Shown here piece after piece: positions 7,872 to 30,249 of a DNA stretch of 64,000 bases (position 1 is the stretch's first letter; each line of letters begins with the position of its first letter). The stretch is from Amaricoccus solimangrovi (lineage in GTDB: Bacteria; Pseudomonadota; Alphaproteobacteria; Rhodobacterales; Rhodobacteraceae), in the NCBI RefSeq assembly GCF_006385685.1, contig NZ_VFRP01000008.1, forward strand, positions 1-64,000, given 5' to 3'. Both the position numbers and the translations under genes were made by a program. Below the pieces are notes generated by a model that worked only from the letters and a program-made list of their open reading frames with translations, had not been told where the DNA came from and did no database searches.

Positions 7872-9278
7872 TCAGAGCTTGTAGGCCTTCTTGGCGAGGC
7901 CGTGGGCGAGGTCGCGCGCCAGCTCCGGCGCGTCCTCCTCGTCGAGCCGGCCGCTCAGGACCAGCGTCGAGAGATACGCGCAGTCCACCCGCCGCGCGAC
8001 GTCGTGGCGCGCGGGGATCGAGCAGAAGGCGCGGGTGTCGTCGTTGAAGCCCACGGTATTGTAGAAACCCGCCGTCTCCGTCGCCATTTCGCGGAAGCGG
8101 CGCATCCCCTCGGCGCTGTCGTGGAACCACCAGGGCGGGCCGAGCTTCAGACAGGGATAGACGCCGGCGAGCGGCGCGAGTTCGCGCGAATAGGACGTCT
8201 CGTCGAGGGTGAACAGGATCACGCTCAGATCGGCGCGGGTGCCGACCGCGTTCAGGAGCGGGCGGAGCGCGGCGACGTAATCGGTGCGGCCGGGAATGTC
8301 GAAACCCTTGTCGCGGCCGAACATCGCCAGCATCGCATCGGAATGGTTGCGCCGGGAGCCGGGGTGGATCTGGAGGACCAGCCCGTCCTCGAGGCTCATC
8401 CGCGCCATTTCGGTCAGCATGTGCCCGCGGAAGGCGTCCGCCTCCTCCGCCGAGCAGGCGCCCCGGAGCGCCTTCCCGAACAGCGCCGCCGCCTCGGTGG
8501 GCGCGAGGTCCTCGGTCCGCGCGGTCGCATGGCCGTGATCCGAGGAGGTGGCGCCGAATTCCTTGAAATAGGCGCGGCGCGCGCGGTGCGCGTCGAGATA
8601 GCCGTCCCAGGTCGCGGTGTCGAAACCGGTCTGCTCGCCCATCAGCGCGACATTCTCGGCGAAGCCCGCCATTTCCGGATCCACCACGCCGTCCGGCCGG
8701 TAGGCGGTGATCACCCGGCCGCCCCAGTTCGAATCGCGGATCATGCCATGCCAGCGCAGCTCGTCGGTCGCGGGCTCGGTCGTGCTGATGACCTCGATGT
8801 TGAACCGCTCGAAGAGCGCGCGGGGGCGGAACTCGGGCCGGGCGAGGCAGTCGGCGATGTGGTCGTAGTACCAGTCCGCCGTCTCGGCGCTCAGCACGCG
8901 GTCGATGCCGAAGACGTGCTGGAAGCTGTGGTCGAGCCAGAGCCGCGAGGGCGTGCCCCGGAACAGGTGATAATGGCTCGCGAAAAGGCGCCAGATCGCG
9001 CGCCCGTCGGTCTCGGTCGGGCCGCCGTCGGCGCGCGGCACGCCGAGCGCCTCGAGCGGGACGCCCTGCGAGAACAGCATCCGGAACACGTAGTGGTCGG
9101 GCGTGACGATCAGCTGCGCCGGATCGGGGAAGGGCTCGTCGAGCGCGTACCAGCGCGGATCGGTATGGCCGTGCGGGCTGACGATCGGCAGGTCGCGGAC
9201 CTCGGCGTAGAGCGCGCGGGCCAGATCGCGGGCGCGGCCTTCGATCGGAAACAGCCGGTCTTCGTCAAGCAGGGCCAT
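7872..9278 (-). CDS. uxaC: Glucuronate/galacturonate isomerase (UxaC)
   Basis: Uronate isomerase of the amidohydrolase-related TIM-barrel family, 468 residues against 470 in E. coli. It interconverts glucuronate with fructuronate and galacturonate with tagaturonate. Visible signatures are the N-terminal metal motif SPHGHTDP, the segment FNIEVISTTEPATDELRWH and the active-site block IHPGSRRNHSD, with NTVGFNDDTRAF near the C-terminus. It is the first gene of the nine-gene minus-strand operon and is separated from a divergent GntR regulator by about 100 bp that holds a good promoter. No damage is visible. Confidence 0.95.
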   Translation of the reverse strand: MALLDEDRLFPIEGRARDLARALYAEVRDLPIVSPHGHTDPRWYALDEPFPDPAQLIVTPDHYVFRMLFSQGVPLEALGVPRADGGPTETDGRAIWRLFASHYHLFRGTPSRLWLDHSFQHVFGIDRVLSAETADWYYDHIADCLARPEFRPRALFERFNIEVISTTEPATDELRWHGMIRDSNWGGRVITAYRPDGVVDPEMAGFAENVALMGEQTGFDTATWDGYLDAHRARRAYFKEFGATSSDHGHATARTEDLAPTEAAALFGKALRGACSAEEADAFRGHMLTEMARMSLEDGLVLQIHPGSRRNHSDAMLAMFGRDKGFDIPGRTDYVAALRPLLNAVGTRADLSVILFTLDETSYSRELAPLAGVYPCLKLGPPWWFHDSAEGMRRFREMATETAGFYNTVGFNDDTRAFCSIPARHDVARRVDCAYLSTLVLSGRLDEEDAPELARDLAHGLAKKAYKL

Positions 9279-20106: not shown

Positions 20107-21384
20107 TCAGGCCGGCTCCCGCGGGAGGCCCGGCTCACCCCGGCCAATGCCGGTCACGAGCCGGGTCAGCGGTGTCGCCGTGATGCCATGGACGAGAACG
20201 GAGGCGAAGACCACGAGGCTCGTCCAGGGCCATAACTCCGCCACGCCGGTTTCCCGCGCGGCGAGCAGCGCGTAATAGGTGGAGGAGACGCCGATGGGTC
20301 CGAACCAGCCCATGAAGGCGAATTCCGCGCGGGTGCCGAATTCCGGCGCCACCACGCGCCCCAGCATCCACCAGGGCAGGCGCCGCAGTGCCAGCACCGC
20401 GGCGGCGAAGGCGGGCGCTGCCCAGCCGAGCGCGGCCCAGTCGCCCCAGGGCAGGGCGACCCCGATCAGGATGAAGGCGGGGAGGTCGAAGAAGCGTCCG
20501 ATCGCCTCCTGCGCGTGTTCGTGCCGCGTCTCGCGGCGCGAGACGTAACGGGCGAAGGTGACGCCCGCGGCGAAGACCGCGAGGATGCCGTCGCCGCCCA
20601 TCAGCCGGACCAGCGCGAGGACGGTGAGCGAGAGCGCGAGGCCGACGGTGATGAGCGAATGATCGTCCGAGAACGGCTGGCGATAGGCCCAGAGCAGCAG
20701 CCGTCCCGCGAGCCAGCCGGCGGCGGCGCCGATCACGACCGCGCCGCCGATCTCCCAGAGAAGGACGCGCGTCAGCCATTCGGTCACCGCCGCGCCCGGC
20801 GGCTCGGTCAGGAGCAGCAGCGGCAGCATGACGAAGAGAAGGCCGAGGCCGTCGTTGGCGCCGCTCTCGGCGATCAGCAGGCGGCGGATCCGGGCGGGGA
20901 GATGCTCGGCGATCTTGCCGGTCGTGATCGAGCCGGCGACGACCGGATCCGTCGGCGCGAGGATCGCGCCGAGGAGCAGGGCGACCAGGGGCGAGGCGCC
21001 GAGAAAGACCGCTGCGAGGCCGGCGGAGGCGAGCCACATGACGAGGAGGCCGGGGCCGAGCACGAGGAGGAGCGGGGCGAGGTTGCGCCGGACATAGCCC
21101 GCCGGCAGGCGCAGCGCCGCGCCCATCACCGCGATCGCGAGCGTCATCCGCGCCACTTCGAGCAGCGCGTCGCGCGGCTCCACGGGCAGCCGCGCGGGAT
21201 CCGCGAGACCGAGCACCGCGGGACCGGCGAGCACGCCCAGCAGAAGGCAGAGCGTCGGTTCCGACATCCACAGGCGGTTCTTCACATATCCCGCGAAGAG
21301 GCCGAGCACGAGCACGACACCGGCGGAGAGGGCGATCGCGATGTTGAACTCGGTCAGGGGGTCGAGGTCGAGAAGAGCGTCCAT
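20107..21384 (-). CDS. Cation:proton antiporter (NhaP/CPA1 type)
   Basis: Integral membrane protein of 425 residues with about 12 helices, exchanging Na+ or K+ for protons. The hallmark helix contains GAILAPTDPVVAGSI and, after an SGANDGLGL motif (ESGANDGLGLLFVMLPLLLL), a series of hydrophobic segments ending in SLVVFASVLVHGITATPLTR. These are typical of the CPA1 family. The ATG at 21384 (MDALLDLDPLTEFNIAIALS) was chosen over an upstream in-frame start because the first membrane helix begins there. It is unlinked to the slipin operon in function as far as can be seen. The exact cation is unknown. Confidence 0.9.
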   Translation of the reverse strand: MDALLDLDPLTEFNIAIALSAGVVLVLGLFAGYVKNRLWMSEPTLCLLLGVLAGPAVLGLADPARLPVEPRDALLEVARMTLAIAVMGAALRLPAGYVRRNLAPLLLVLGPGLLVMWLASAGLAAVFLGASPLVALLLGAILAPTDPVVAGSITTGKIAEHLPARIRRLLIAESGANDGLGLLFVMLPLLLLTEPPGAAVTEWLTRVLLWEIGGAVVIGAAAGWLAGRLLLWAYRQPFSDDHSLITVGLALSLTVLALVRLMGGDGILAVFAAGVTFARYVSRRETRHEHAQEAIGRFFDLPAFILIGVALPWGDWAALGWAAPAFAAAVLALRRLPWWMLGRVVAPEFGTRAEFAFMGWFGPIGVSSTYYALLAARETGVAELWPWTSLVVFASVLVHGITATPLTRLVTGIGRGEPGLPREPA

Positions 21385-21532
21385 GCCGGGGAACGAGGCG
21401 CGGCGGGGTTTGTTCCGGGATCGGCGCGGTCGGCCGATCCCGGCGTGGCGCGCCCCGGCGCCGTTTTCCACGCCGGACTCCCTCCGGCATGCTATTCTCC
21501 GCGCCGGGGAGCAAACGCGCTGGGAGAGAGCG

Positions 21533-22321
21533 ATGGCGAAACTTCACGGGACCCCGTGCTGGTACGAACTGGTGACCGAGGGGCCGGATCTGGAGGGGGC
21601 GGAAAGGTTCTACGCCGAGGTTCTGGGCTGGAGCTTCCGCGACGCGGGGATGGAGGGGTTCACCTATCACCTCGCCGCCGCGGGCGACGACCTGGTGGCG
21701 GGGGTGATGGAGAAGCCCGCCGAACTCGGCGAGACGCCGCCCTTCTGGATGATCTACTTCGCGGTCGAGGACGCCGACGCCGCCGTCGCGGCGATCCGCG
21801 CCGCCGGGGGCGCGGTCCATCGCGAGCCGGCGGACATCCCGGGCACGGGCCGCTTCGCCGTCGTCGCCGATCCGCAGGGCGCGGGCTTCGGCGTCCTTCA
21901 GCCCGAACCGATGCCGGGCGACAGGCCCGCCGGCCATGCCTTCGACCAGGCGAAGCCCGGGCACGGCAACTGGAACGAACTGATGTCGAGCGATCCGGAG
22001 GCGGGGCTGCGCTTCTATTCCGACCTCTTCGGCTGGGAGAAGTCGCGCGCGATCGACATGGGCGAGACGGGCGTCTACCAGTTCTTCGCGCATGACGGCG
22101 CCGATATCGGCGGCATGATGGGCCTCGGGCCCGCGCCGGTCCCATGCTGGCTGCCGTATTTCGGCGTCGAGGGGGTTGGAGGGGCCATCGCGCGGATCGA
22201 GGCCGGCGGCGGCGTGCTCGCGCATGGGCCGATGGAAGTTCCCGGCGGCGCCCATATCGCCGTGGCCCGCGACCCGCGCGGCGCGTGGTTCGCGGTCGTC
22301 GGACCGAACGACGCGCCCTGA
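21533..22321 (+). CDS. Double-domain VOC-family protein (glyoxalase/bleomycin resistance superfamily)
   Basis: Two tandem vicinal-oxygen-chelate modules in 262 residues. The first begins GTPCWYELVTEGPDLEGAER and the second GHGNWNELMSSDPEAGLRFY; each contains FYxxxxGW (FYAEVLGWSF and FYSDLFGWEK). The C-terminal ARDPRGAWFAVVGP is typical of the subgroup annotated as 27-kDa antigen-like or VOC proteins. A GGGAGAGAG ribosome-binding site precedes the ATG at 21533. Function is unknown: such proteins bind metal or small hydrophobic compounds, but no substrate can be assigned. Confidence 0.85.
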   Translation: MAKLHGTPCWYELVTEGPDLEGAERFYAEVLGWSFRDAGMEGFTYHLAAAGDDLVAGVMEKPAELGETPPFWMIYFAVEDADAAVAAIRAAGGAVHREPADIPGTGRFAVVADPQGAGFGVLQPEPMPGDRPAGHAFDQAKPGHGNWNELMSSDPEAGLRFYSDLFGWEKSRAIDMGETGVYQFFAHDGADIGGMMGLGPAPVPCWLPYFGVEGVGGAIARIEAGGGVLAHGPMEVPGGAHIAVARDPRGAWFAVVGPNDAP

Positions 22322-22486: not shown

Positions 22487-25105
22487 ATGGACACGTCGCG
22501 CGAGAGATTCGCCGATCGATCCGCCGCCGGCCGGCGGCTGGCGGCGCTGCTCGCGCCGATGACCCTGGAACGGCCGGTGGTCTATGCCTTGCCCCGGGGC
22601 GGCGTTCCCGTGGCGGTCGAGGTCGCCCGCGCGCTGCGCGCGCCGCTCGACCTCATTCTCGTCCGCAAGATCGGCGCTCCCGGCTCGCCGGAGGTGGCGC
22701 TCGGCGCGGTCGTCGACGGCGAGGATCCCCGGACCGTGATCAACGAGGAGGTGCGGCGCCGCGCGCGCGCGGACGACGCCTTCCTCGAACGCGCCCGCGC
22801 GCGCGAACTCGCGGAGCTCGAGCGGCGGCGGGCGCGCTATCTCGCCGACCGTCCGCCAGTCAGCCCCGCCGGCCGCGCCGCGATCGTCGTCGACGACGGC
22901 CTCGCCACCGGCGCGACGATGAAGGCCGCGCTGATCTCGCTCAGGCGGCGCGGCGCGGCGAAGGTCTGCGTCGCGCTGCCCGTGGCGCCGGAGGATGCGT
23001 TGAACGAGATCCGGGAACAGGCCGACCTGGTCGTCTGCGCCCGTCCCGCGCGGCATTTCGAGGGTGTCGGCGCCTTCTATCACGACTTCCACCAGCTCAC
23101 CGACGAGGAGACGGTCGGGCTGCTCCGCCGGTACTGGGCGGAGCAGGCCGATCCGCCCGCCGCCCGCGAGGTCGCGGTGCCGCCGCTCGGTCTCGCCGGC
23201 GATCTCCGCGTGCCGGCCACGCCGCGGGGTCTGGTGCTCTTCGTCCACGACGGTTCCGGCCGGCTCGACCCGCGCGACGCCGCCGTCGCCGGGACGCTCG
23301 AGGCGCGGGGTTTCGCCACGCTGCGCTTCGACCCGCTGACGCCGGCCGAGACACGGGACCGCCGGAACGTCTTCGACATCCCGCTGCTGGCGGAACGCGT
23401 CGTCGAGGCCGTGCTCTACGTGAGCGGCGAGCCCGATGTCGCCGTCCTGCCGCTCGGCCTCCTCGGGGTCGGCACGGGCGCCGGGGCGGCGCTGCTCGCG
23501 GCGGCCGAGCTTGGCGACAGGATCGGGGCCATCGTCGCCAGGGGCGGACGGGGGGACCTCGCCGGCACGCGCCTCGTCGCCGTCCGCTCGCCGACGCTGC
23601 TGATCGTCGGCGGCGAGGACCGGCACGTGCTGGAGCTGAACCGCCAGACGCTGGCGGCGCTGACCTGCGAGAAGCTGCTGCGGGTGGTTCCCGGCGCCGG
23701 CCCCCTGTTCGATGAGCCCGGCGCGCTCGACACCGTCGCCGATCTCGCGGCGAGCTGGTGCGAGCAGCACGCGGCGGCGCGACCCCCGCCCGCGCCGCGG
23801 GCGAGACAGCCATCGCTCGCCGGGCGGCTGCGCGGCGCGGTGACGCCGCTTCCCGCCCTCGACGATCCCGCCTTCGCGGATGCTTTCGAGCGTTTCGCCT
23901 CGGCCCGCGTCGTGCTCCTCGGCGAGGCGTCGCATGGCACCTCCGAATTCTACCGCGCCCGCGCCGCCATCACCCGGCGCCTGATCGAGCGTCACGGCTT
24001 CGGGATCGTCGCGGTGGAGGCCGACTGGCCCGACGCGGCGGCGATCGACCGCCACATCCAGCGGCGGTCCGCGGCGGCGCCGTCCGAGCCGCCGTTCACC
24101 CGGTTTCCGACCTGGATGTGGCGCAACCGGGAGGTCGAGGATTTCGTGGAATTCCTGCGCCGCCACAACGCTGCGAAGCCGCCGGGGGAGCAGGTCGGGT
24201 TCCATGGCCTCGATCTCTACGGCATGACCGCCTCGATCGCGGCCGTGCTCGCCTATCTCGACCGGGTCGATCCCCCGGCGGGGCGGGAGGCGCGCGTCCA
24301 GTACGGCTGCCTCGCGCCGTGGTCGCGGGAATTCGCCGCCTACGGGCGCGCCGCGCTCAGCAAGGGCTACGCGCTCTGCGAGGCGCCGGTCACGCGCGCG
24401 CTGACCGATCTGCTGGCGAAGCGGCTGAGCTACGCGGAACGCGACGGCGAGCAGTTCTTCGACGCGGCGCAGAACGCGCGGCTGGTGACGAGCGCGGAGC
24501 GCTACTACCGGGCGATGTATTACGGCTCGCGTGAATCGTGGAATCTGCGCGACCGGCACATGTTCGACACGCTCGGGCGGGTGCTCGAGCGGGCGGGGCC
24601 GGAGAGCAGGGCGGTGGTCTGGGCGCACAATTCCCATATCGGGGACGCGCGGTTCACCGACATGGGATCCGAGCGGGGCGAGATCAACATCGGCCAGCTC
24701 TGCCGCCAGGCATACGGGCGCGACGCCGCGCTGATCGGCTTCGGCACCCATTCGGGAACGGTCGCCGCCGCGTCCGAATGGGACGGGGCGATGGAGATCA
24801 TGAACGTGCGCCCCTCCCGGGCGGACAGCTACGAGGCGCTCTGCCACGACCTTGGCGAGGAGCGGTTCCTGCTGCCCTGCGCGGACCTCGCGCCCGACCT
24901 CGGGCAGGCGCTCGCCGAGCCGCGGCTCGAGCGCTACATCGGTGTCATCTACCGGCCCGAGACCGAACGCTGGAGCCACTATTCCCGTGCCTCGCTTCCG
25001 GAGCAGTACGACGCCTTCGTCTGGTTCGACGAAACCCGCGCGGTCACGCCGCTCCCCGGGCGGGCGACGGCGGGCGAGGATGAGACCTATCCCTTCGGCC
25101 TCTGA
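22487..25105 (+). CDS. Phosphoribosyltransferase / alpha-beta hydrolase-like / erythromycin esterase-like fusion protein
   Basis: A single 872-residue chain with three modules. Residues 1 to about 220 form a phosphoribosyltransferase with the PRPP loop VVDDGLATGATM and YALPRGGVPVA. Residues about 225-425 resemble a dienelactone-hydrolase fold, but the nucleophile elbow reads GVGTG, with Gly329 where Ser is expected, and the usual His near VPGAGPLF is Pro406. Residues about 455-870 are an erythromycin-esterase-like domain with the catalytic set kept: Glu480 and His483 in GEASHGTSE, Glu511 in EADWPDA, His714 and His717 in WAHNSHIGD. No signal peptide is present. These three families often occur as neighbours, which suggests one process of unknown nature. 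The true substrate is unlikely to be erythromycin. Confidence 0.88.
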   Translation: MDTSRERFADRSAAGRRLAALLAPMTLERPVVYALPRGGVPVAVEVARALRAPLDLILVRKIGAPGSPEVALGAVVDGEDPRTVINEEVRRRARADDAFLERARARELAELERRRARYLADRPPVSPAGRAAIVVDDGLATGATMKAALISLRRRGAAKVCVALPVAPEDALNEIREQADLVVCARPARHFEGVGAFYHDFHQLTDEETVGLLRRYWAEQADPPAAREVAVPPLGLAGDLRVPATPRGLVLFVHDGSGRLDPRDAAVAGTLEARGFATLRFDPLTPAETRDRRNVFDIPLLAERVVEAVLYVSGEPDVAVLPLGLLGVGTGAGAALLAAAELGDRIGAIVARGGRGDLAGTRLVAVRSPTLLIVGGEDRHVLELNRQTLAALTCEKLLRVVPGAGPLFDEPGALDTVADLAASWCEQHAAARPPPAPRARQPSLAGRLRGAVTPLPALDDPAFADAFERFASARVVLLGEASHGTSEFYRARAAITRRLIERHGFGIVAVEADWPDAAAIDRHIQRRSAAAPSEPPFTRFPTWMWRNREVEDFVEFLRRHNAAKPPGEQVGFHGLDLYGMTASIAAVLAYLDRVDPPAGREARVQYGCLAPWSREFAAYGRAALSKGYALCEAPVTRALTDLLAKRLSYAERDGEQFFDAAQNARLVTSAERYYRAMYYGSRESWNLRDRHMFDTLGRVLERAGPESRAVVWAHNSHIGDARFTDMGSERGEINIGQLCRQAYGRDAALIGFGTHSGTVAAASEWDGAMEIMNVRPSRADSYEALCHDLGEERFLLPCADLAPDLGQALAEPRLERYIGVIYRPETERWSHYSRASLPEQYDAFVWFDETRAVTPLPGRATAGEDETYPFGL

Positions 25106-25288: not shown

Positions 25289-26050
25289 TCAGCCCGCGAT
25301 GGCGCGGATCGCGAAGAAGATGAGCGAGGGTCCGAGCAGGCAGCCGAGGCCGGTGTAGAAGGTCGCCGTCATCGCGCCATAGGGGACGAGGCGCGGGTCG
25401 GTGGCGGCGAGGCCGCCGGCGACGCCGCTCGTCGTGCCCATGAGCCCGCCGAAGACCATCGCGGTGCGCGCGTTGTCGAGGCCGATCGAGCGGGCGACGA
25501 AGGGCGTGCCGATCATCACCAGCACCGACTTGACGAGCCCGGCGGCGACGCTGAGCGCGATGACCTCGGAGGAGGCGCCGAGCGCGGTGCCGGTGACGGG
25601 GCCGACGATATAGGTCGCGGCGCCGGCGCCGATCGTGGTCATCGAGACCGGGTCGGTATAGCCGAAGCCATAGGCGACGAGCGCCCCGACCGCGAAGGAG
25701 ACGAAGACGCCCGCGAAGAGCGAGACGACGCCCGAGAGACCCGCCCGGCGGATCTCGGAGAAATCGACCCCGAAGGCGGTGGCGACGATGGCGAAGTCGC
25801 GCAGCATCGCGCCGCCCATCAGGCCGATCCCGGCGAAGAGCGGGATGTCGGCGAGGCCCTTGGAGCCGCCGGTGAGCGTGCCGCCGACCCAGGCCAGCGC
25901 GAGGCCCGCGAGGATGGCGATGGCGGAGCCGTGGATCCGGCCGTTGGTGAAGCGCTTCGAGACCCAGTAGCAGAGCCACATCGTCAGGCCGACGAAGGAG
26001 AAGGCGAAGAGCAGGCCGTTCTTGATCAGGAGTTCGGACAGGTCGGTCAT
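25289..26050 (-). CDS. madM: Malonate transporter subunit MadM
   Basis: Integral membrane protein of 253 residues. It works with the small subunit MadL to import malonate with a cation. Several hydrophobic helices are seen, with conserved stretches KRFTNGRIHGSAIAILAGLA, GYTDPVSMTTIGAGAATYIV and RTAMVFGGLMGTTSGVAGGL. Its start is 1 bp after the madL stop. The gene ends the matA/matB/madL/madM operon. The match to MadM is good in length and motifs. Confidence 0.9.
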   Translation of the reverse strand: MTDLSELLIKNGLLFAFSFVGLTMWLCYWVSKRFTNGRIHGSAIAILAGLALAWVGGTLTGGSKGLADIPLFAGIGLMGGAMLRDFAIVATAFGVDFSEIRRAGLSGVVSLFAGVFVSFAVGALVAYGFGYTDPVSMTTIGAGAATYIVGPVTGTALGASSEVIALSVAAGLVKSVLVMIGTPFVARSIGLDNARTAMVFGGLMGTTSGVAGGLAATDPRLVPYGAMTATFYTGLGCLLGPSLIFFAIRAIAG

Positions 26051-26051
26051 C

Positions 26052-26471
26052 TCAGCAGGCCTTCTCGGGAGCGATGGCGGGGGCGGTATCGGAACGGGTT
26101 TCCGGGGCGGTCGCGGATCGGCCGCCGACGCGGGCGATGACGGGAACCAGCGCGACGCAGACCGCCGCCGTCAGGACGCCCGCGAGGATCGCGGCCGGGC
26201 CGCCGGAAACGGCCGCGACCACGTTCTGCTGCGCGGCCATGGCGACGACGATGGGGATGTACATCGCGCTCCAGAAGCCGATGCCCATCTGCGAGATCTC
26301 GCAGAAGGCCTTCCTGCGCCGCAGGTAGTCGGTGATGAAGATCAGGAGCAGCATCGCGAAGCCGACGCCGCCGACATTGGCCTGCACGCCGATGAGATTG
26401 CCGAGAAGGTCGCCCACGAACACGCCGGCCAGCAGGCAGGCGGACAGGATGGCGACGCCATAGATGATCAT
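26052..26471 (-). CDS. madL: Malonate transporter subunit MadL
   Basis: Small membrane protein of 139 residues with three or four helices. It begins MIIYGVAILSACLLAGVFVG and contains GNLIGVQANVGGVGFAMLLL, both typical of MadL. A cytoplasmic loop DYLRRRKAFCEISQMGIGFW follows. The C-terminal tail after residue 115 is hydrophilic and less conserved. It lies between matB and madM on the minus strand; an 86-bp gap separates it from matB. MadL and MadM together form the sodium- or proton-coupled malonate carrier. Confidence 0.9.
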   Translation of the reverse strand: MIIYGVAILSACLLAGVFVGDLLGNLIGVQANVGGVGFAMLLLIFITDYLRRRKAFCEISQMGIGFWSAMYIPIVVAMAAQQNVVAAVSGGPAAILAGVLTAAVCVALVPVIARVGGRSATAPETRSDTAPAIAPEKAC

Positions 26472-26557
26472 TGGTATTCCTCCGAGTTGTATCTTTGTTC
26501 TGTCTTTCGGGAGTCGCGCCCTCCCGGGGAAGCGAGGCCTTTCGGCCCCGCCGGGGC

Positions 26558-28093
26558 TCAGCCCGCCGCCAGCGCCTCCGCCGGCTGATAGAGCGCGGCG
26601 TGGCGCTTGCGAAGTTCCGCCTTCTGCACCTTGCCCATCACGTTGCGGGGCAGTTCATCGGCGAGAATGACCCGCTTGGGCTGCTTGTAGCGCGCGAGCC
26701 GGTCCGCGAGCGCGGCGGCGAGGCCGGCGGGATCGACGCTCTCGCCCTCGCGCGGCACGACGACGGCGGTGACGCCCTCGCCGAGATCCGGATGCGGCAG
26801 GCCGATCACGGCGGATTCGAGCACGCCCGGCAGTTCGTCGATCAGCGCCTCGATCTCCTTCGGATAGACGTTGTAGCCGCCCGAGATCACGAGATCCTTG
26901 TCGCGGCCGACGATGCGCAGGTAGCCCTCCGCGTCGATCAGGCCAAGGTCGCCGGTGATGAAGAAACCGTCGGGGCGGAATTCGGCCGCGGTCTTCTCCG
27001 GCATCCGCCAGTAGCCCGCGAAGACGTTCGGGCCGCGCACCTCGATCGCGCCGATCTCGCCCTGGGGCAGGGGCGCGCCGGTCTCGCGGTCGGCGACGCG
27101 GATCTCGACGCCGGGCAGCGCGAAGCCGACCGCGCCGGGGCGGCGCGCGCCGTCATAGGGGTTGGAGGCGATCATGCAGGTCTCGGTCATGCCGTAGCGC
27201 TCGAGGATCGCATGGCCGGTCCGCGCCGAGAATTCGGCGTGGGTATCGGCGAGCAGCGGGGCCGAGCCGGAGACGAAGAGCCGCATTCCGGCGGTCGAGA
27301 CCGCGTCGAGCCGCGGCGACTGGACGAGGCGGGTGTAGAAGGTCGGCACGCCCATCAGCACGGTCGCATCCGCCATCTCGGTGATGATCTCGTCCGCGTC
27401 GAACCGGGTCAGGAAGATCATCGTCGCCCCGGCGGCGAGCGCCATGTTGGCGGCGACGAAGAGCCCGTGGGTATGGAAGATCGGCAGCGCGTGGATCAGC
27501 CGGTCGCGCTCGGTGAAGCGCCAGCAGTCGAGAAGCGCGGCGCAGTTGGAGGCGAGATTGCCATGCGTCAGCACCGCGCCCTTGGAGCGCCCGGTGGTGC
27601 CGGAGGTGTAGAGGATCGCCGCCGGATCCTCCGCGCCGGGCGCGGCCCGTTCCGCCAGCGGCTCCGCCGCCGCGAGCCGGTCCATCAGCGTGCCCTCGCC
27701 CGCCGCGCCGAGGGTCTCGACCGCGAGGCTTTCCGTCGCGCGGCCGGCATGCGCCTCGAGCGTCTCCGGGCGGCAGACGAAGAGCCGCGGCTCGGCGTCG
27801 CCGAGGAAATAGTCGATCTCGGCGCCGGTATAGGCGGTGTTGAGCGGCAGGAAGACACCCCCCGCCGTCAGCGTCGCGAGATAGAGCAGGATCGCCTCGG
27901 GGCTCTTGTCGACCTGGACCGCGACGCGGTCGCCGGGGCGCACGCCGAGGTCCCGGAGCACGCGGGCGAGTCGGCGGCTCCGGTCGAGCGCCTCGGCGAA
28001 GCCGATCGGCGCGAGGCCGGGGCGTTCGAAGAGCGCCTTGTCGCCCTGGGCGCGGCAACTCCGCTCGAACATCTCGATGAGGGTGGTCGTCAT
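26558..28093 (-). CDS. matB: Malonyl-CoA synthetase (MatB)
   Basis: Adenylate-forming enzyme of 511 residues that activates malonate with ATP and CoA. The AMP-binding P-loop is ILYTSGTTGRSKGAVLTHGN. Further motifs are GVPTFYTRLVQSPRL, YGMTETCMIASNPYDGARRP, GYWRMPEKTAAEF, and the C-terminal hinge DGFFITGDLGLIDAEGYLRI and catalytic Lys region PRNVMGKVQKAELRK. The ATG at 28093 begins at MTTTLIEMFE; the frame stays open far upstream, but that part overlaps the decarboxylase gene and is not coding. With malonyl-CoA decarboxylase upstream it makes acetyl-CoA from malonate. Confidence 0.94.
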   Translation of the reverse strand: MTTTLIEMFERSCRAQGDKALFERPGLAPIGFAEALDRSRRLARVLRDLGVRPGDRVAVQVDKSPEAILLYLATLTAGGVFLPLNTAYTGAEIDYFLGDAEPRLFVCRPETLEAHAGRATESLAVETLGAAGEGTLMDRLAAAEPLAERAAPGAEDPAAILYTSGTTGRSKGAVLTHGNLASNCAALLDCWRFTERDRLIHALPIFHTHGLFVAANMALAAGATMIFLTRFDADEIITEMADATVLMGVPTFYTRLVQSPRLDAVSTAGMRLFVSGSAPLLADTHAEFSARTGHAILERYGMTETCMIASNPYDGARRPGAVGFALPGVEIRVADRETGAPLPQGEIGAIEVRGPNVFAGYWRMPEKTAAEFRPDGFFITGDLGLIDAEGYLRIVGRDKDLVISGGYNVYPKEIEALIDELPGVLESAVIGLPHPDLGEGVTAVVVPREGESVDPAGLAAALADRLARYKQPKRVILADELPRNVMGKVQKAELRKRHAALYQPAEALAAG

Positions 28094-28119
28094 GATGCGT
28101 CTCGCTTCCGTTGGGGGGA

Positions 28120-29454
28120 TCAGGCGGCGGAGGAGCGGGCGGACAGCGCGCGCCGCACCTCGGGGCCGTGGGCGATGGTGCCATCGGCGGCGAAGGCCTC
28201 GTGCCGGGCCTCGATGGCGTCGAGTTCGTAGAGGTAGTTGATCATCAGGCCATGGGCGCGCTTGAGGGCGCTCGGCGCGAAATCGGCCGGCCAGTTGATC
28301 CGGTGCGCCGAGGCGCCGTTGCCGAGGTGGAAACGCGCGACCGGATCGACCGGCGCCCCGCGCTTCGTCCTGGCCTCGACGAAATAACGCGCGGCCCAGA
28401 GCTGGATCCGGGGCGCGAGCGCGGCCTGGAGCCCCAGGTCCTCGCGCCAGTTCTCCCCGGCCAGCGTCGCGGACAGCGCGCGGGCCTCCGGATCCTCCTC
28501 CGCCGCGAGCCAGGCGGCGAAGCCCGGCGCGGGCGAGAGCGTGACGAAGGTCTCGAGCCCGGGCAGGTCCTCCCGCAGGTCGCGCACCACCTGCTTGATG
28601 AGGAAGTTGCCGAAGGACACGCCCTTGAGGCCCGGCTGGCAGTTGCTGATCGAATAGAAGACCGCCGTGTCGGCCTCCGCCGCCGCCCCCTCGGCCGCCC
28701 CGCCCGCGGCGATGAGCGGGCCGATCGCATCGGGAATGCCCGCGCAGAGCGCCACCTCGACGAAGATCAGCGGCTCGTCGCCGGTCGCCGGGTGGAAGAA
28801 GGCGTAGCAGCGGCGATCCTCCGGATCGAGACGGCGGCGCAGGTCGTCCCAGTCGCGGATCTCGTGCACCGCCTCGTAGGCGACGATCTTCTCGAGGATC
28901 GCCGCCGGCGTGTTCCAGTCGATGCGTCGCATCACGAGGAAGCCGCGGTTGAACCACGAGGCGAGCAGATGATCGAAATCGATGTCGAGCGGCGCGAGCG
29001 AAGGCTCGCCCCGCAGCGCCTCGAGCAGGCTCGCGCGCATGCGCACGAGCCTGAGCGTGCCGCCGGGCGCGAGGTTGAGCCGGCGGAGCAGCGTCTGGCG
29101 GCGCGGCTCGACCGCGGCGAAGAGCCGGGCCAGCGCGGCCTGGTCCGGGGCCGCGTCCCAGGCCGCGTAGGCCGCGCGGACCTGGGCCGGATCGGCGCCG
29201 TAGTCGTCGAGAAGCGCCCGGAAGAAGGCGGCGCGGCCGGCCGCGTCGAGCGCGTCGAAGGCGTCGAGCGCCTCGCCGGCCACCGCGATCCGCGAGGCCT
29301 CGCCGCTCGGGCGCATCAGCCGCGCGCAGGCGGCGGCGAGGCGGGGGCCGGCGGGGGTCTCGGAAACGGCGGCGGGGCGCGCGAGCCGCGGCCGCACATT
29401 GGCGCCGATGCTCTGGATGAGGTCCTGCAGGAAGGCGATGTTCGGCTTTGGCAC
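28120..29454 (-). CDS. matA: Malonyl-CoA decarboxylase
   Basis: Cytoplasmic enzyme of 444 residues that converts malonyl-CoA to acetyl-CoA and CO2. An N-terminal helical domain (residues about 1-150) precedes the acyltransferase-like catalytic domain, which has SISNCQPGLKGVSFGNFLIK (catalytic Ser region) and the C-terminal FHLGNGASAHRINWPAD with its His. The GTG at 29454 is the start: a full AGGAGG lies 5 bases upstream, whereas the frame upstream lacks any ATG. It is the first gene of the mat/mad operon, divergent from the matR regulator, with an inverted-repeat operator candidate between them. Confidence 0.93.
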   Translation of the reverse strand: MPKPNIAFLQDLIQSIGANVRPRLARPAAVSETPAGPRLAAACARLMRPSGEASRIAVAGEALDAFDALDAAGRAAFFRALLDDYGADPAQVRAAYAAWDAAPDQAALARLFAAVEPRRQTLLRRLNLAPGGTLRLVRMRASLLEALRGEPSLAPLDIDFDHLLASWFNRGFLVMRRIDWNTPAAILEKIVAYEAVHEIRDWDDLRRRLDPEDRRCYAFFHPATGDEPLIFVEVALCAGIPDAIGPLIAAGGAAEGAAAEADTAVFYSISNCQPGLKGVSFGNFLIKQVVRDLREDLPGLETFVTLSPAPGFAAWLAAEEDPEARALSATLAGENWREDLGLQAALAPRIQLWAARYFVEARTKRGAPVDPVARFHLGNGASAHRINWPADFAPSALKRAHGLMINYLYELDAIEARHEAFAADGTIAHGPEVRRALSARSSAA

Positions 29455-29501
29455 GGGTTCCTCCTGGGTCGTTGGTAATGTTATACGCCTGATTGGTTCT
29501 G

Positions 29502-29514
29502 TTGTATATAACAA
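29502..29514. promoter_or_regulatory. Candidate MatR operator between decarboxylase and matR
   Basis: TTGT and ACAA arms separated by ATATA form a 13-bp inverted repeat in an AT-rich patch of the divergent intergenic region. The TTGTA/TACAA type of half site is characteristic of several FadR-subgroup GntR regulators, including MatR-type proteins. It lies 48 bases upstream of the decarboxylase start codon and 37 bases upstream of matR, so it could control both. Confidence 0.5.
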
Positions 29515-29550
29515 ACCGCATCTGGATGTTGATCCGAGGAGTCCCTAGAA

Positions 29551-30249
29551 ATGAGAGGCTTGGCAGAGGAGACTGGCGCCGCGATGAGCACGCTGCCGAA
29601 CGTGGTCCGGATCCGCGAGGCGCTGGAGAACGCGATCGTGGACGGGCGATTCGCTCCCGGGGCGAAGCTCGATCCCGAGGCGCTGGCCCGGGAGTTCGAC
29701 GTGTCGCGCACCCCGATCCGCGAGGCGCTGCAGCAGCTCGAGGCCTCGGGTCTCGTCCGGGTCGCCGCCAAGCGCGGCACCTTCGTCTCGGAATGGAGTC
29801 CGGAGGAACTGGCCGAGCGGTTCGAGATGATGGCCGAGGTCGAGGCCTCCTGCGCCCGGCTCGCCGCCCGGCGGATCACCGATACCGAACTGGCCGAACT
29901 CGAGGCGCTGCACGCCTCCTGCCACCGTCTGGCCGAGGCGGGCGACATCGACGCCTATTACGCCGAGAACTCGGCCTTCCACCATTGCCTCTACCGCGCC
30001 ACCCACAACGCCTTTCTCGCGCGCGAGGCCGGCCGTCTGCACGCGATGCTGCAGCCCTACCGGCGGATGCAGCTGCAGGTGCGCAATCGCCTCGGCCGCT
30101 CCTTCGACGAGCACGAGGCGGTGGTCCGGGCGATCCGCGCCGGCGACGACGCCGCGGCCGGGGAGGCGATGCGCGACCATGTCGTGGTGCAGGGCGACCG
30201 GTTCCACGACCTCCTCGCCGCGCTCCGTCAGGCGCGCCGAGCCGGATAG
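29551..30249 (+). CDS. matR: GntR-family regulator of malonate genes (MatR-like)
   Basis: FadR-subgroup repressor of 232 residues. The winged helix contains GRFAPGAKLDPEALAREFDV, then SRTPIREALQQLEASGLVRV. The FCD domain includes the metal-type His pattern AFHHCLYRATHNAFLA and EHEAVVRAIRAGDD. It is divergent from the malonyl-CoA decarboxylase gene, the standard position of MatR, and malonate or malonyl-CoA is the likely effector. The start at 29551 follows GAGGAG at a slightly long spacing; an internal ATG at 29584 is possible. Direct repression of the mat/mad operon is inferred from layout. Confidence 0.87.
   Translation: MRGLAEETGAAMSTLPNVVRIREALENAIVDGRFAPGAKLDPEALAREFDVSRTPIREALQQLEASGLVRVAAKRGTFVSEWSPEELAERFEMMAEVEASCARLAARRITDTELAELEALHASCHRLAEAGDIDAYYAENSAFHHCLYRATHNAFLAREAGRLHAMLQPYRRMQLQVRNRLGRSFDEHEAVVRAIRAGDDAAAGEAMRDHVVVQGDRFHDLLAALRQARRAG

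What the first reader, a model, noticed from the sequence alone, without database searches (positions are those of the whole stretch)
22487..25105. Three-enzyme fusion with a dead middle hydrolase
One 872-residue chain joins a phosphoribosyltransferase, a dienelactone-hydrolase-like fold and an erythromycin-esterase-like enzyme. The PRPP loop and the esterase catalytic set (Glu480, His483, Glu511, His714, His717) are kept, but the hydrolase nucleophile is Gly329 (GVGTG in place of GxSTG) and its catalytic His position is Pro406. The central domain may be a structural or binding module linking two active enzymes. The three families recur as neighbours, so the fusion suggests a common unknown pathway, perhaps modification of a nucleoside-like or ribosylated compound.
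Basis: partly seen in the sequence, partly recalled or inferred. Interest (0 to 1): 0.75.

Follow-up and report, generated by a model that had tools for sequence, protein, structure and literature searches.

The report
Stress-linked triple enzyme, middle part dead
One bacterial gene fuses a phosphoribosyltransferase, an alpha/beta hydrolase and an erythromycin-esterase-like enzyme; the fusion recurs in other bacteria, often beside heat-shock genes, but in this genome, unlike nearly all relatives seen, the middle enzyme has lost its catalytic machinery.

Summary
One 872-residue frame joins a TT1426-type phosphoribosyltransferase (PRT), a 2o2g-type alpha/beta hydrolase (HYD) and an erythromycin-esterase-family domain (ERE). 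In HYD the nucleophile Ser is Gly329, the catalytic His is Pro406, and the conserved HGSGSSR loop is damaged. The reading is only half right. The fusion is no rarity: 35 other loci with it were found, most in an alphaproteobacterial clade, three in a Bdellovibrionota-type clade. In 33 of those 35 the hydrolase keeps Ser, Asp and His; the other two lost only His. So loss of both Ser and His is private to this copy and does not define the architecture. The damage is confined to that domain: the window breaks 14 of 74 otherwise invariant HYD columns, against 0-2 in each of 27 other fusions, while PRT and ERE are ordinary. No second copy of the three domains was found in the genome. Many relatives sit in stress islands (Hsp20 in 8 of 20 triple-fusion loci; also USP, GrpE, DegP- and Lon-like proteins); the window shows no such neighbours. 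Best reading: a stress-associated fusion whose hydrolase decayed into a folded spacer between two probably active enzymes. Substrates are unknown.

The parts
22487..25105 (+). fused gene, 872 aa: PRT - alpha/beta hydrolase - erythromycin-esterase-like
   Evidence: open frame; Pfam; PDB matches; one frame spanning the three domains in 35 other loci, five of them broken or cut
22487..23137 (+). PRT domain, residues 1-217, TT1426 type
   Evidence: 1wd5 E 2.7e-44, Foldseek TMt 0.86; PF00156
22880..22921 (+). PRPP-binding loop AIVVDDGLATGATM, residues 132-145
   Evidence: conserved in the 16 fusions aligned
23162..23770 (+). middle alpha/beta-hydrolase domain, residues 226-428, without catalytic Ser and His in this copy
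   Evidence: 2o2g E 4.2e-42, Foldseek TMt 0.91, rmsd 1.6; pLDDT 84-97 per 10-residue block from 231 to 430; 14 of 74 otherwise invariant columns changed
23240..23278 (+). damaged loop 252-264 (FVH-DGSGRLDPRD where relatives have FAHGSGSSRxSPRN), one residue missing
23471..23473 (+). codon 329, Gly at the nucleophile position
   Evidence: Ser in all 35 other triple fusions
23702..23704 (+). codon 406, Pro at the catalytic His position
   Evidence: His in 33 of 35 other triple fusions, Asn in L094, Cys in L100
23849..25102 (+). erythromycin-esterase-like domain, residues 455-872
   Evidence: PF05139 E 2e-137; 2qgm, 2rad, 6xcq
23924..24637 (+). span of the conserved Ere active-site residues Glu480 to His717
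   Evidence: alignment with EreC and Bacillus homologues, conserved in fusions
21341..22321 (+). upstream neighbour, glyoxalase (VOC) family protein; longest frame, true start not determined
   Evidence: Pfam
25289..26050 (-). downstream convergent neighbour MadM, end of a malonate gene group
   Evidence: Pfam

Best explanation
This is a member of a recurrent fusion of three enzymes for which I found no experimental study. Normally the PRT end binds PRPP and transfers a phosphoribosyl group to an unknown acceptor, the middle Ser-hydrolase cleaves an ester- or lactone-like bond, and the C-terminal Ere-type enzyme uses its Glu/His set to activate water on another ester; the joint lets steps be coupled during stress or dormancy. 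In this copy the hydrolase has decayed: nucleophile, catalytic His and the HGSGSSR loop are gone or damaged, and the folded domain remains as a spacer or binding module between two enzymes under ordinary constraint. SHOWN by sequence: fusion, recurrence, loss of both Ser and His in this copy only among those examined, acceleration mainly in this domain, stress-gene neighbourhood of part of the relatives. PREDICTED: retained fold. INFERRED: activity of PRT and ERE, coupling of steps, role in stress. UNKNOWN: substrates.
For: 33 of 35 other triple fusions, 28 of 30 PRT-HYD fusions (one more is cut off before the His) and 27 of 27 single-gene hydrolases keep Ser/His/Asp. Leave-one-out over 28 fusions of the alphaproteobacterial clade: window HYD 14/74 against 0-2 in each other row; PRT 2/61, ERE 2/130. 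Relative-rate test against the closest relative L089 (75% identical): HYD 29-35 window-only against 8-14 L089-only changes, p 0.0001-0.016 with 6 of 6 outgroups; PRT p > 0.18 in 6 of 6; ERE p < 0.05 in 2 of 6. HYD end branch 0.52 against 0.13 for L089. The L089 hydrolase still scores against Pfam Hydrolase_4, Abhydrolase_1 and DLH, the window's against none. Fold: 2o2g TMt 0.91, rmsd 1.6. No further copy of the three domains found in the genome (21 of 21 candidates scored; 16 of 16, E <= 10). PRT and Ere genes stand side by side without a hydrolase hit in Komagataeibacter, and single PRT-ERE frames occur in L115 and L116, which also hold a PRT-HYD frame. Stress neighbourhood: Hsp20 in 8 of 20 triple and 6 of 30 PRT-HYD loci, 1 of 19 PRT-only, 0 of 11 separate; Pfam of neighbours.
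Against: No stress genes were seen beside the fusion here (Hsp20 0 in 64 kb; nine neighbours scanned are VOC, antiporter, NfeD, SPFH, malonate genes and a GntR regulator). 12 of 20 triple-fusion loci have no Hsp20 within the DNA held. No substrate, expression or activity is known. The clustering of changes in active-site loops is not significant (9 of 32 in loops, 4 of 41 outside, Fisher p 0.064), so selective loss of the site and general decay of the domain cannot be told apart. ERE is also somewhat faster than in L089 with 2 of 6 outgroups. L112, which keeps the triad, has a long HYD branch too (0.42), though its gene is frame-broken. 3 of 36 relatives (35 other triple fusions plus L112) are frame-broken (L055, L094 in ERE, L112 in HYD), so whole genes of this type may be dispensable.
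Confidence: 0.7

Rival explanations
1. Pseudoenzyme with a job: the middle domain lost hydrolysis but is kept by selection as a ligand-binding or regulatory module that controls the flanking enzymes.
For: Fold predicted well; frame kept; window-L089 dN/dS of HYD 0.28, well below 1. By hand (window, L089, L063), the window's own share of HYD dN is about 0.155 against 0.05 for L089; with half the window-L089 dS (0.37) that is a ratio of about 0.4, so not fully neutral over the whole branch.
Against: The same figure arises if the domain was constrained for part of the branch and free afterwards. Only one genome has it, so no conserved new feature can be tested.
Confidence: 0.3
2. The whole gene is on the way to loss and the hydrolase went first.
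For: Frame breaks in L055, L094 and L112; His lost also in L094 and L100; patchy presence: 11 of 394 family genomes with the full fusion, 1 of 11 in the genus.
Against: PRT and ERE of the window are within the spread of the relatives; window-L089 dN/dS 0.20 and 0.22.
Confidence: 0.15
3. The Ere domain is an antibiotic-resistance esterase and the fusion a resistance gene.
For: PF05139 membership; E480, H483, E511, H714 match EreC catalytic residues.
Against: NCBIfam EreA, EreB and EreD scores 18-35 bits against cut-offs of 750-800; stress genes recur beside relatives (a search for resistance genes there was not made); the same Ere type is fused to a protein-isoaspartate methyltransferase in 4 of 4 longer Ere proteins scanned.
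Confidence: 0.04
4. Sequencing or assembly error mimics the losses.
For: Draft assembly of 135 contigs; only one genome shows it; reads were not available.
Against: Fourteen separate invariant columns changed, frame intact; GC3 of the domain 0.94 against 0.91 for the other two.
Confidence: 0.02

Closest known systems
Rv2030c (PRT-Ere, Mycobacterium dormancy genes)
   Same: PRT domain and erythromycin-esterase superfamily in one protein, operon with hspX, hypoxia-induced (PMC4410610, passages); listed as uncharacterised in a dormancy review (PMC5309233, passages)
   Different: No hydrolase domain is mentioned in the passages read; its sequence was not compared here
PRT-HYD two-domain proteins found here; Rv0571c
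   Same: PRT-HYD order in Streptomyces, Rhodococcus, Rhodanobacter and others. Rv0571c is called a putative phosphoribosyltransferase (PMC5309233) and a DosR-regulated protein seen in carbon starvation (PMC12090744, passages); that it carries the hydrolase is recalled, not tested
   Different: No Ere domain; Ser/His/Asp kept in 28 of 30
2o2g, hydrolase of Anabaena variabilis deposited as dienelactone hydrolase
   Same: Fold and 44% identity over the middle domain
   Different: 2o2g has Ser and His; the window has Gly and Pro
TT1426 (1wd5) of Thermus thermophilus
   Same: 47% identity, TMt 0.86 over the PRT domain
   Different: A 208-residue chain of its own; acceptor not found in any call
PCMT-Ere fusions
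   Same: The same Ere type (64.5% identical in L062) at the C-terminus
   Different: The N-terminal part holds a protein-L-isoaspartate methyltransferase instead of PRT-HYD (L062, L035, L004, L003)
Unfused Ere-hydrolase-PRT gene rows of Sphingobium and Novosphingobium
   Same: The three families as consecutive genes
   Different: Separate genes, reverse order, hydrolase Ser/His kept in L059 and L060

Membership tests
PRT, TT1426 type (PF00156) | family match above cut-off | tested here: met
   48.2 bits against 26.3; 1wd5
PRT, TT1426 type (PF00156) | PRPP loop with two acidic residues and small residues (motif recalled) | tested here: met
   VVDDGLATGAT, conserved
PRT, TT1426 type (PF00156) | phosphoribosyl transfer from PRPP | not testable with these tools
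   needs an assay
2o2g-type Ser hydrolase | sequence and fold of the family | tested here: met
   E 4.2e-42; TMt 0.91
2o2g-type Ser hydrolase | nucleophile Ser in GxSTG | tested here: not met
   Gly329
2o2g-type Ser hydrolase | catalytic His in xHLF | tested here: not met
   Pro406
2o2g-type Ser hydrolase | conserved Asp of the triad | tested here: met
   Asp378
2o2g-type Ser hydrolase | HGSGSSR loop | tested here: not met
   one residue missing, two of its Ser and a conserved Ser just after it replaced
classical dienelactone hydrolase | Cys nucleophile | tested here: not met
   Gly here, Ser in nearly all relatives; Cys123 from the PDB title of 1ggv
erythromycin esterase superfamily PF05139 | family match above cut-off | tested here: met
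   459.1 bits against 26.4
erythromycin esterase superfamily PF05139 | EreC residues E47, H50, E78, H289 | tested here: met
   E480, H483, E511, H714; R261 not checked
EreA, EreB, EreD resistance esterases | NCBIfam cut-offs | tested here: not met
   25.1, 34.6, 18.3 bits against 750, 750, 800
PRT-HYD-ERE triple fusion (no published name found) | three domains in one frame in this order | tested here: met
   36 loci including the window's own
PRT-HYD-ERE triple fusion (no published name found) | location in a stress island (true of part of the relatives only, 8 of 20 with Hsp20) | tested here: not met
   no Hsp20 in the window, no stress family among nine scanned neighbours

The most novel reading that the evidence does not exclude
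The PRT, Ser-hydrolase and Ere domains (and, elsewhere, PCMT with Ere) form a widespread stress- or dormancy-linked repair or salvage enzyme whose Ere part has a native substrate unrelated to antibiotics, made by phosphoribosyl or methyl transfer; in this genome the hydrolase became a selected pseudoenzyme that holds or regulates the two remaining steps.
Probability: 0.2. Interest if true: 0.7.

Novelty: new variant of a known kind. Interest (0 to 1): 0.4.

Why it matters
The Ere family is named after its drug-resistance members, yet the relatives here are fused to a PRT, a hydrolase or a protein-repair methyltransferase, and 8 of 20 triple-fusion loci hold heat-shock genes. The fusion suggests that the activities belong together and gives one protein on which the native Ere substrate could be sought. 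This copy is a natural experiment: it indicates that the hydrolase step can be lost while the other two domains stay constrained.

Tried and rejected
Rejected: a dead middle domain as a rule of the fusion (33 of 35 others intact). Rejected: another Ser, Cys or His as clear nucleophile or base (inventory); Thr330 beside Gly329 is invariant in the alignments of 14 and 30 rows, so it is no new replacement. Rejected: a fusion unique to this assembly. Not found: a backup copy in the genome. Considered and not shown: that changes cluster at the active site (Fisher p 0.064). Considered: one or two origins of the triple fusion; the HYD tree needs two changes, an alphaproteobacterial set of 33 (plus the broken L112; support 84) and a Bdellovibrionota-type set of 3 (support 100) beside actinobacterial PRT-HYD (support 84), but supports are SH-aLRT from a quick search and one origin is not excluded.

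Literature: the three family names together gave 0 papers, 'erythromycin esterase' with 'phosphoribosyltransferase domain' 0, 'erythromycin esterase' with 'phosphoribosyltransferase' 4 (listing only, except PMC4410610, passages). Searches (1 paper; 2 papers) gave papers that look unrelated from title and abstract start. PMC8939145 (passages) names both families in separate places, no fusion. Other searches. No paper on the triple fusion was seen; the library holds only open-licence PMC papers.

Rows dropped: the leave-one-out set holds 27 of the 35 other triple fusions (left out: L055 and L094 frame-broken; L102, L104 and L105 cut by contig ends; L122, L133 and L139 distant). L067 and L098 are identical. 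L017 gave no usable HYD segment and L026, a duplicate of L023, was skipped. In some searches at most two candidates per genome were scored, so counts of separate genes there are lower bounds. The Pfam neighbour scans took 15 of the 20 triple loci and 14 of the 60 other loci, with genes from a home-made codon-usage caller, so starts and small genes may be wrong. The Hsp20 profile was built from 14 neighbours of triple fusions, loci differ in length, and related loci are not independent.

Full report
What is there. The frame 22487-25105 (+) codes 872 residues. Residues 7-217 match the putative PRT TT1426 (1wd5, E 2.7e-44), 226-425 the Anabaena hydrolase 2o2g (E 4.2e-42), and about 467-769 structures of the erythromycin-esterase family. 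Pfam finds PF00156 and PF05139 but no hydrolase family for the middle, although the middle domain of the closest relative L089 still matches Hydrolase_4, Abhydrolase_1 and DLH. A model built on 30 sequences has mean pLDDT 83 and pTM 0.54, with the PRT and HYD parts confident and several stretches between 520 and 680 below 50, so domain arrangement should not be read from it. Foldseek gives 2o2g TMt 0.91, 1wd5 0.86, 2qgm 0.68, EreC 0.57.

Active sites. The PRPP loop is intact. EreC's E47, H50, E78 and H289, described as catalytic in PMC7979712 (passages), align with E480, H483, E511 and H714. In the middle domain Ser becomes Gly329 and His becomes Pro406, one residue of the HGSGSSR loop is missing, two of its serines and a conserved one just after it are replaced, and a conserved Leu is Pro283; Asp378 remains. 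No other Ser, Cys or His stands at the elbow or the His loop.

How common is the fusion? Full-length matches occur in 2 of 101 relatives, 11 of 394 genomes of the family, 1 of 385 genomes drawn from the class and 1 of 11 in the genus, the own genome included each time, and on five plasmids of Salipiger and Rhizobium, one of them in two frames. Over everything fetched there are 36 triple-fusion loci including the window, one pair of them identical.

Is the death general? No. In 95 aligned middle domains, 33 of 35 other triple fusions, 28 of 30 PRT-HYD fusions, 27 of 27 single-gene hydrolases, the HYD-ERE frame of L112 and 2o2g have Ser, His and Asp. Exceptions: L094 His to Asn (its Ere is frame-broken), L100 His to Cys, L141 Ser to Gly by alignment (with neighbouring Ser residues), and L157 cut off before the His. 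The window alone lost both Ser and His.

Is only that domain affected? Largely. In three leave-one-out counts the window breaks 18 of 95 (14 other fusions), 13 of 78 (13 others) and 14 of 74 (27 others) otherwise invariant HYD columns; any other fusion breaks 0-4, 0-3 and 0-2. PRT (2/72, 2/69, 2/61) and ERE (6/161, 6/165, 2/130) lie within the spread of the others. The third set joins the first two. The relative-rate test against L089 is significant for HYD with all six outgroups, for PRT with none, and for ERE with two of six, so a mild acceleration of ERE is possible. Window-L089 dN/dS is 0.28 for HYD, 0.20 for PRT, 0.22 for ERE; synonymous sites of most other pairs are near saturation. L112 has a long HYD branch as well (0.42) although its triad is kept.

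Context. Neighbours of 15 of the 20 named triple-fusion loci (131 proteins) include 14 Hsp20, 6 USP, 3 GrpE, 3 DegP-like (trypsin with PDZ) and 3 Lon-type proteins; the Hsp20 lie in 7 of the 15 loci. A profile search of the 80 named loci finds Hsp20 in 8 of 20 triple, 6 of 30 PRT-HYD, 0 of 11 separate and 1 of 19 PRT-only loci (fused against not, 14 of 50 against 1 of 30, Fisher p 0.007; loci are not independent and differ in length). Neighbours of 14 further loci (127 proteins) include 11 USP, 4 Hsp20 and sensor or response-regulator domains. The Sphingobium gene row lies near USP, a BON protein, a PfkB-type kinase, a ribose-phosphate diphosphokinase and a thymidine-phosphorylase-family gene. 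In mycobacteria a PRT-Ere protein, Rv2030c, is hypoxia-induced and in an operon with hspX (PMC4410610, passages), and Rv0571c, called a putative PRT, is DosR-regulated (PMC5309233 and PMC12090744, passages). The window itself shows none of this: VOC protein, antiporter, NfeD, SPFH on one side, malonate transport and catabolism on the other, no Hsp20 in 64 kb.

Reading. The family is best seen as a stress-linked multi-step enzyme with unknown substrates. In this genome the middle step seems lost, with no backup copy found, while the outer domains look constrained. That PRT and Ere genes also stand together without a hydrolase in Komagataeibacter, and in one frame in L115 and L116, which hold a PRT-HYD frame as well, makes such a loss plausible. 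Whether the remnant is a spacer or a selected pseudoenzyme cannot be settled with one genome.

Noticed in passing
L112 about 8600-8810 (Devosia oryzisoli): PRT and HYD-ERE lie in two overlapping frames, the break falling at the start of the hydrolase domain; decay, error or recoding not decided.
   Followed up: partly
L055 about 12080; L094 about 9838: Triple fusions of Rhizobium johnstonii and Shinella yambaruensis are frame-broken inside the Ere part.
   Followed up: partly
L100 8001-10652 (Boseongicola MAG): His of the HGSGSS loop is Tyr and the catalytic His is Cys with Ser kept: a second, separate wearing of the hydrolase.
   Followed up: no
L141 7974-9284 (Allonocardiopsis): PRT-HYD protein with Gly at the nucleophile position by alignment and an odd HGQASGR loop.
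   Followed up: no
L062 5230-7221, L035, L004, L003: The same Ere type fused to protein-L-isoaspartate O-methyltransferase; several such genes are annotated on rhizobial plasmids.
   Followed up: partly
L122, L133, L139: Triple fusions of a Bdellovibrionota-type clade group beside actinobacterial PRT-HYD in the hydrolase tree: possible second origin of the fusion.
   Followed up: partly
L098, L099, L101 downstream of the fusion: Conserved row of three Hsp20 genes, a DegP-like protease and a GrpE-like gene after the fusion.
   Followed up: partly
L059 11216-15000 (Sphingobium TKS): Unfused trio near PfkB-type kinase, CBS protein, ribose-phosphate diphosphokinase and thymidine-phosphorylase-family gene: a possible PRPP supply.
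   Followed up: no
L006 (G001, same genus): An Ere part (65% identical, residues 586-872) running into a contig end, so whether it is fused cannot be seen.
   Followed up: no
window 25289-30249: Malonate gene group: MadM, MadL, AMP-binding enzyme (malonyl-CoA ligase like, by context), malonyl-CoA decarboxylase and a divergent GntR/FCD regulator.
   Followed up: partly
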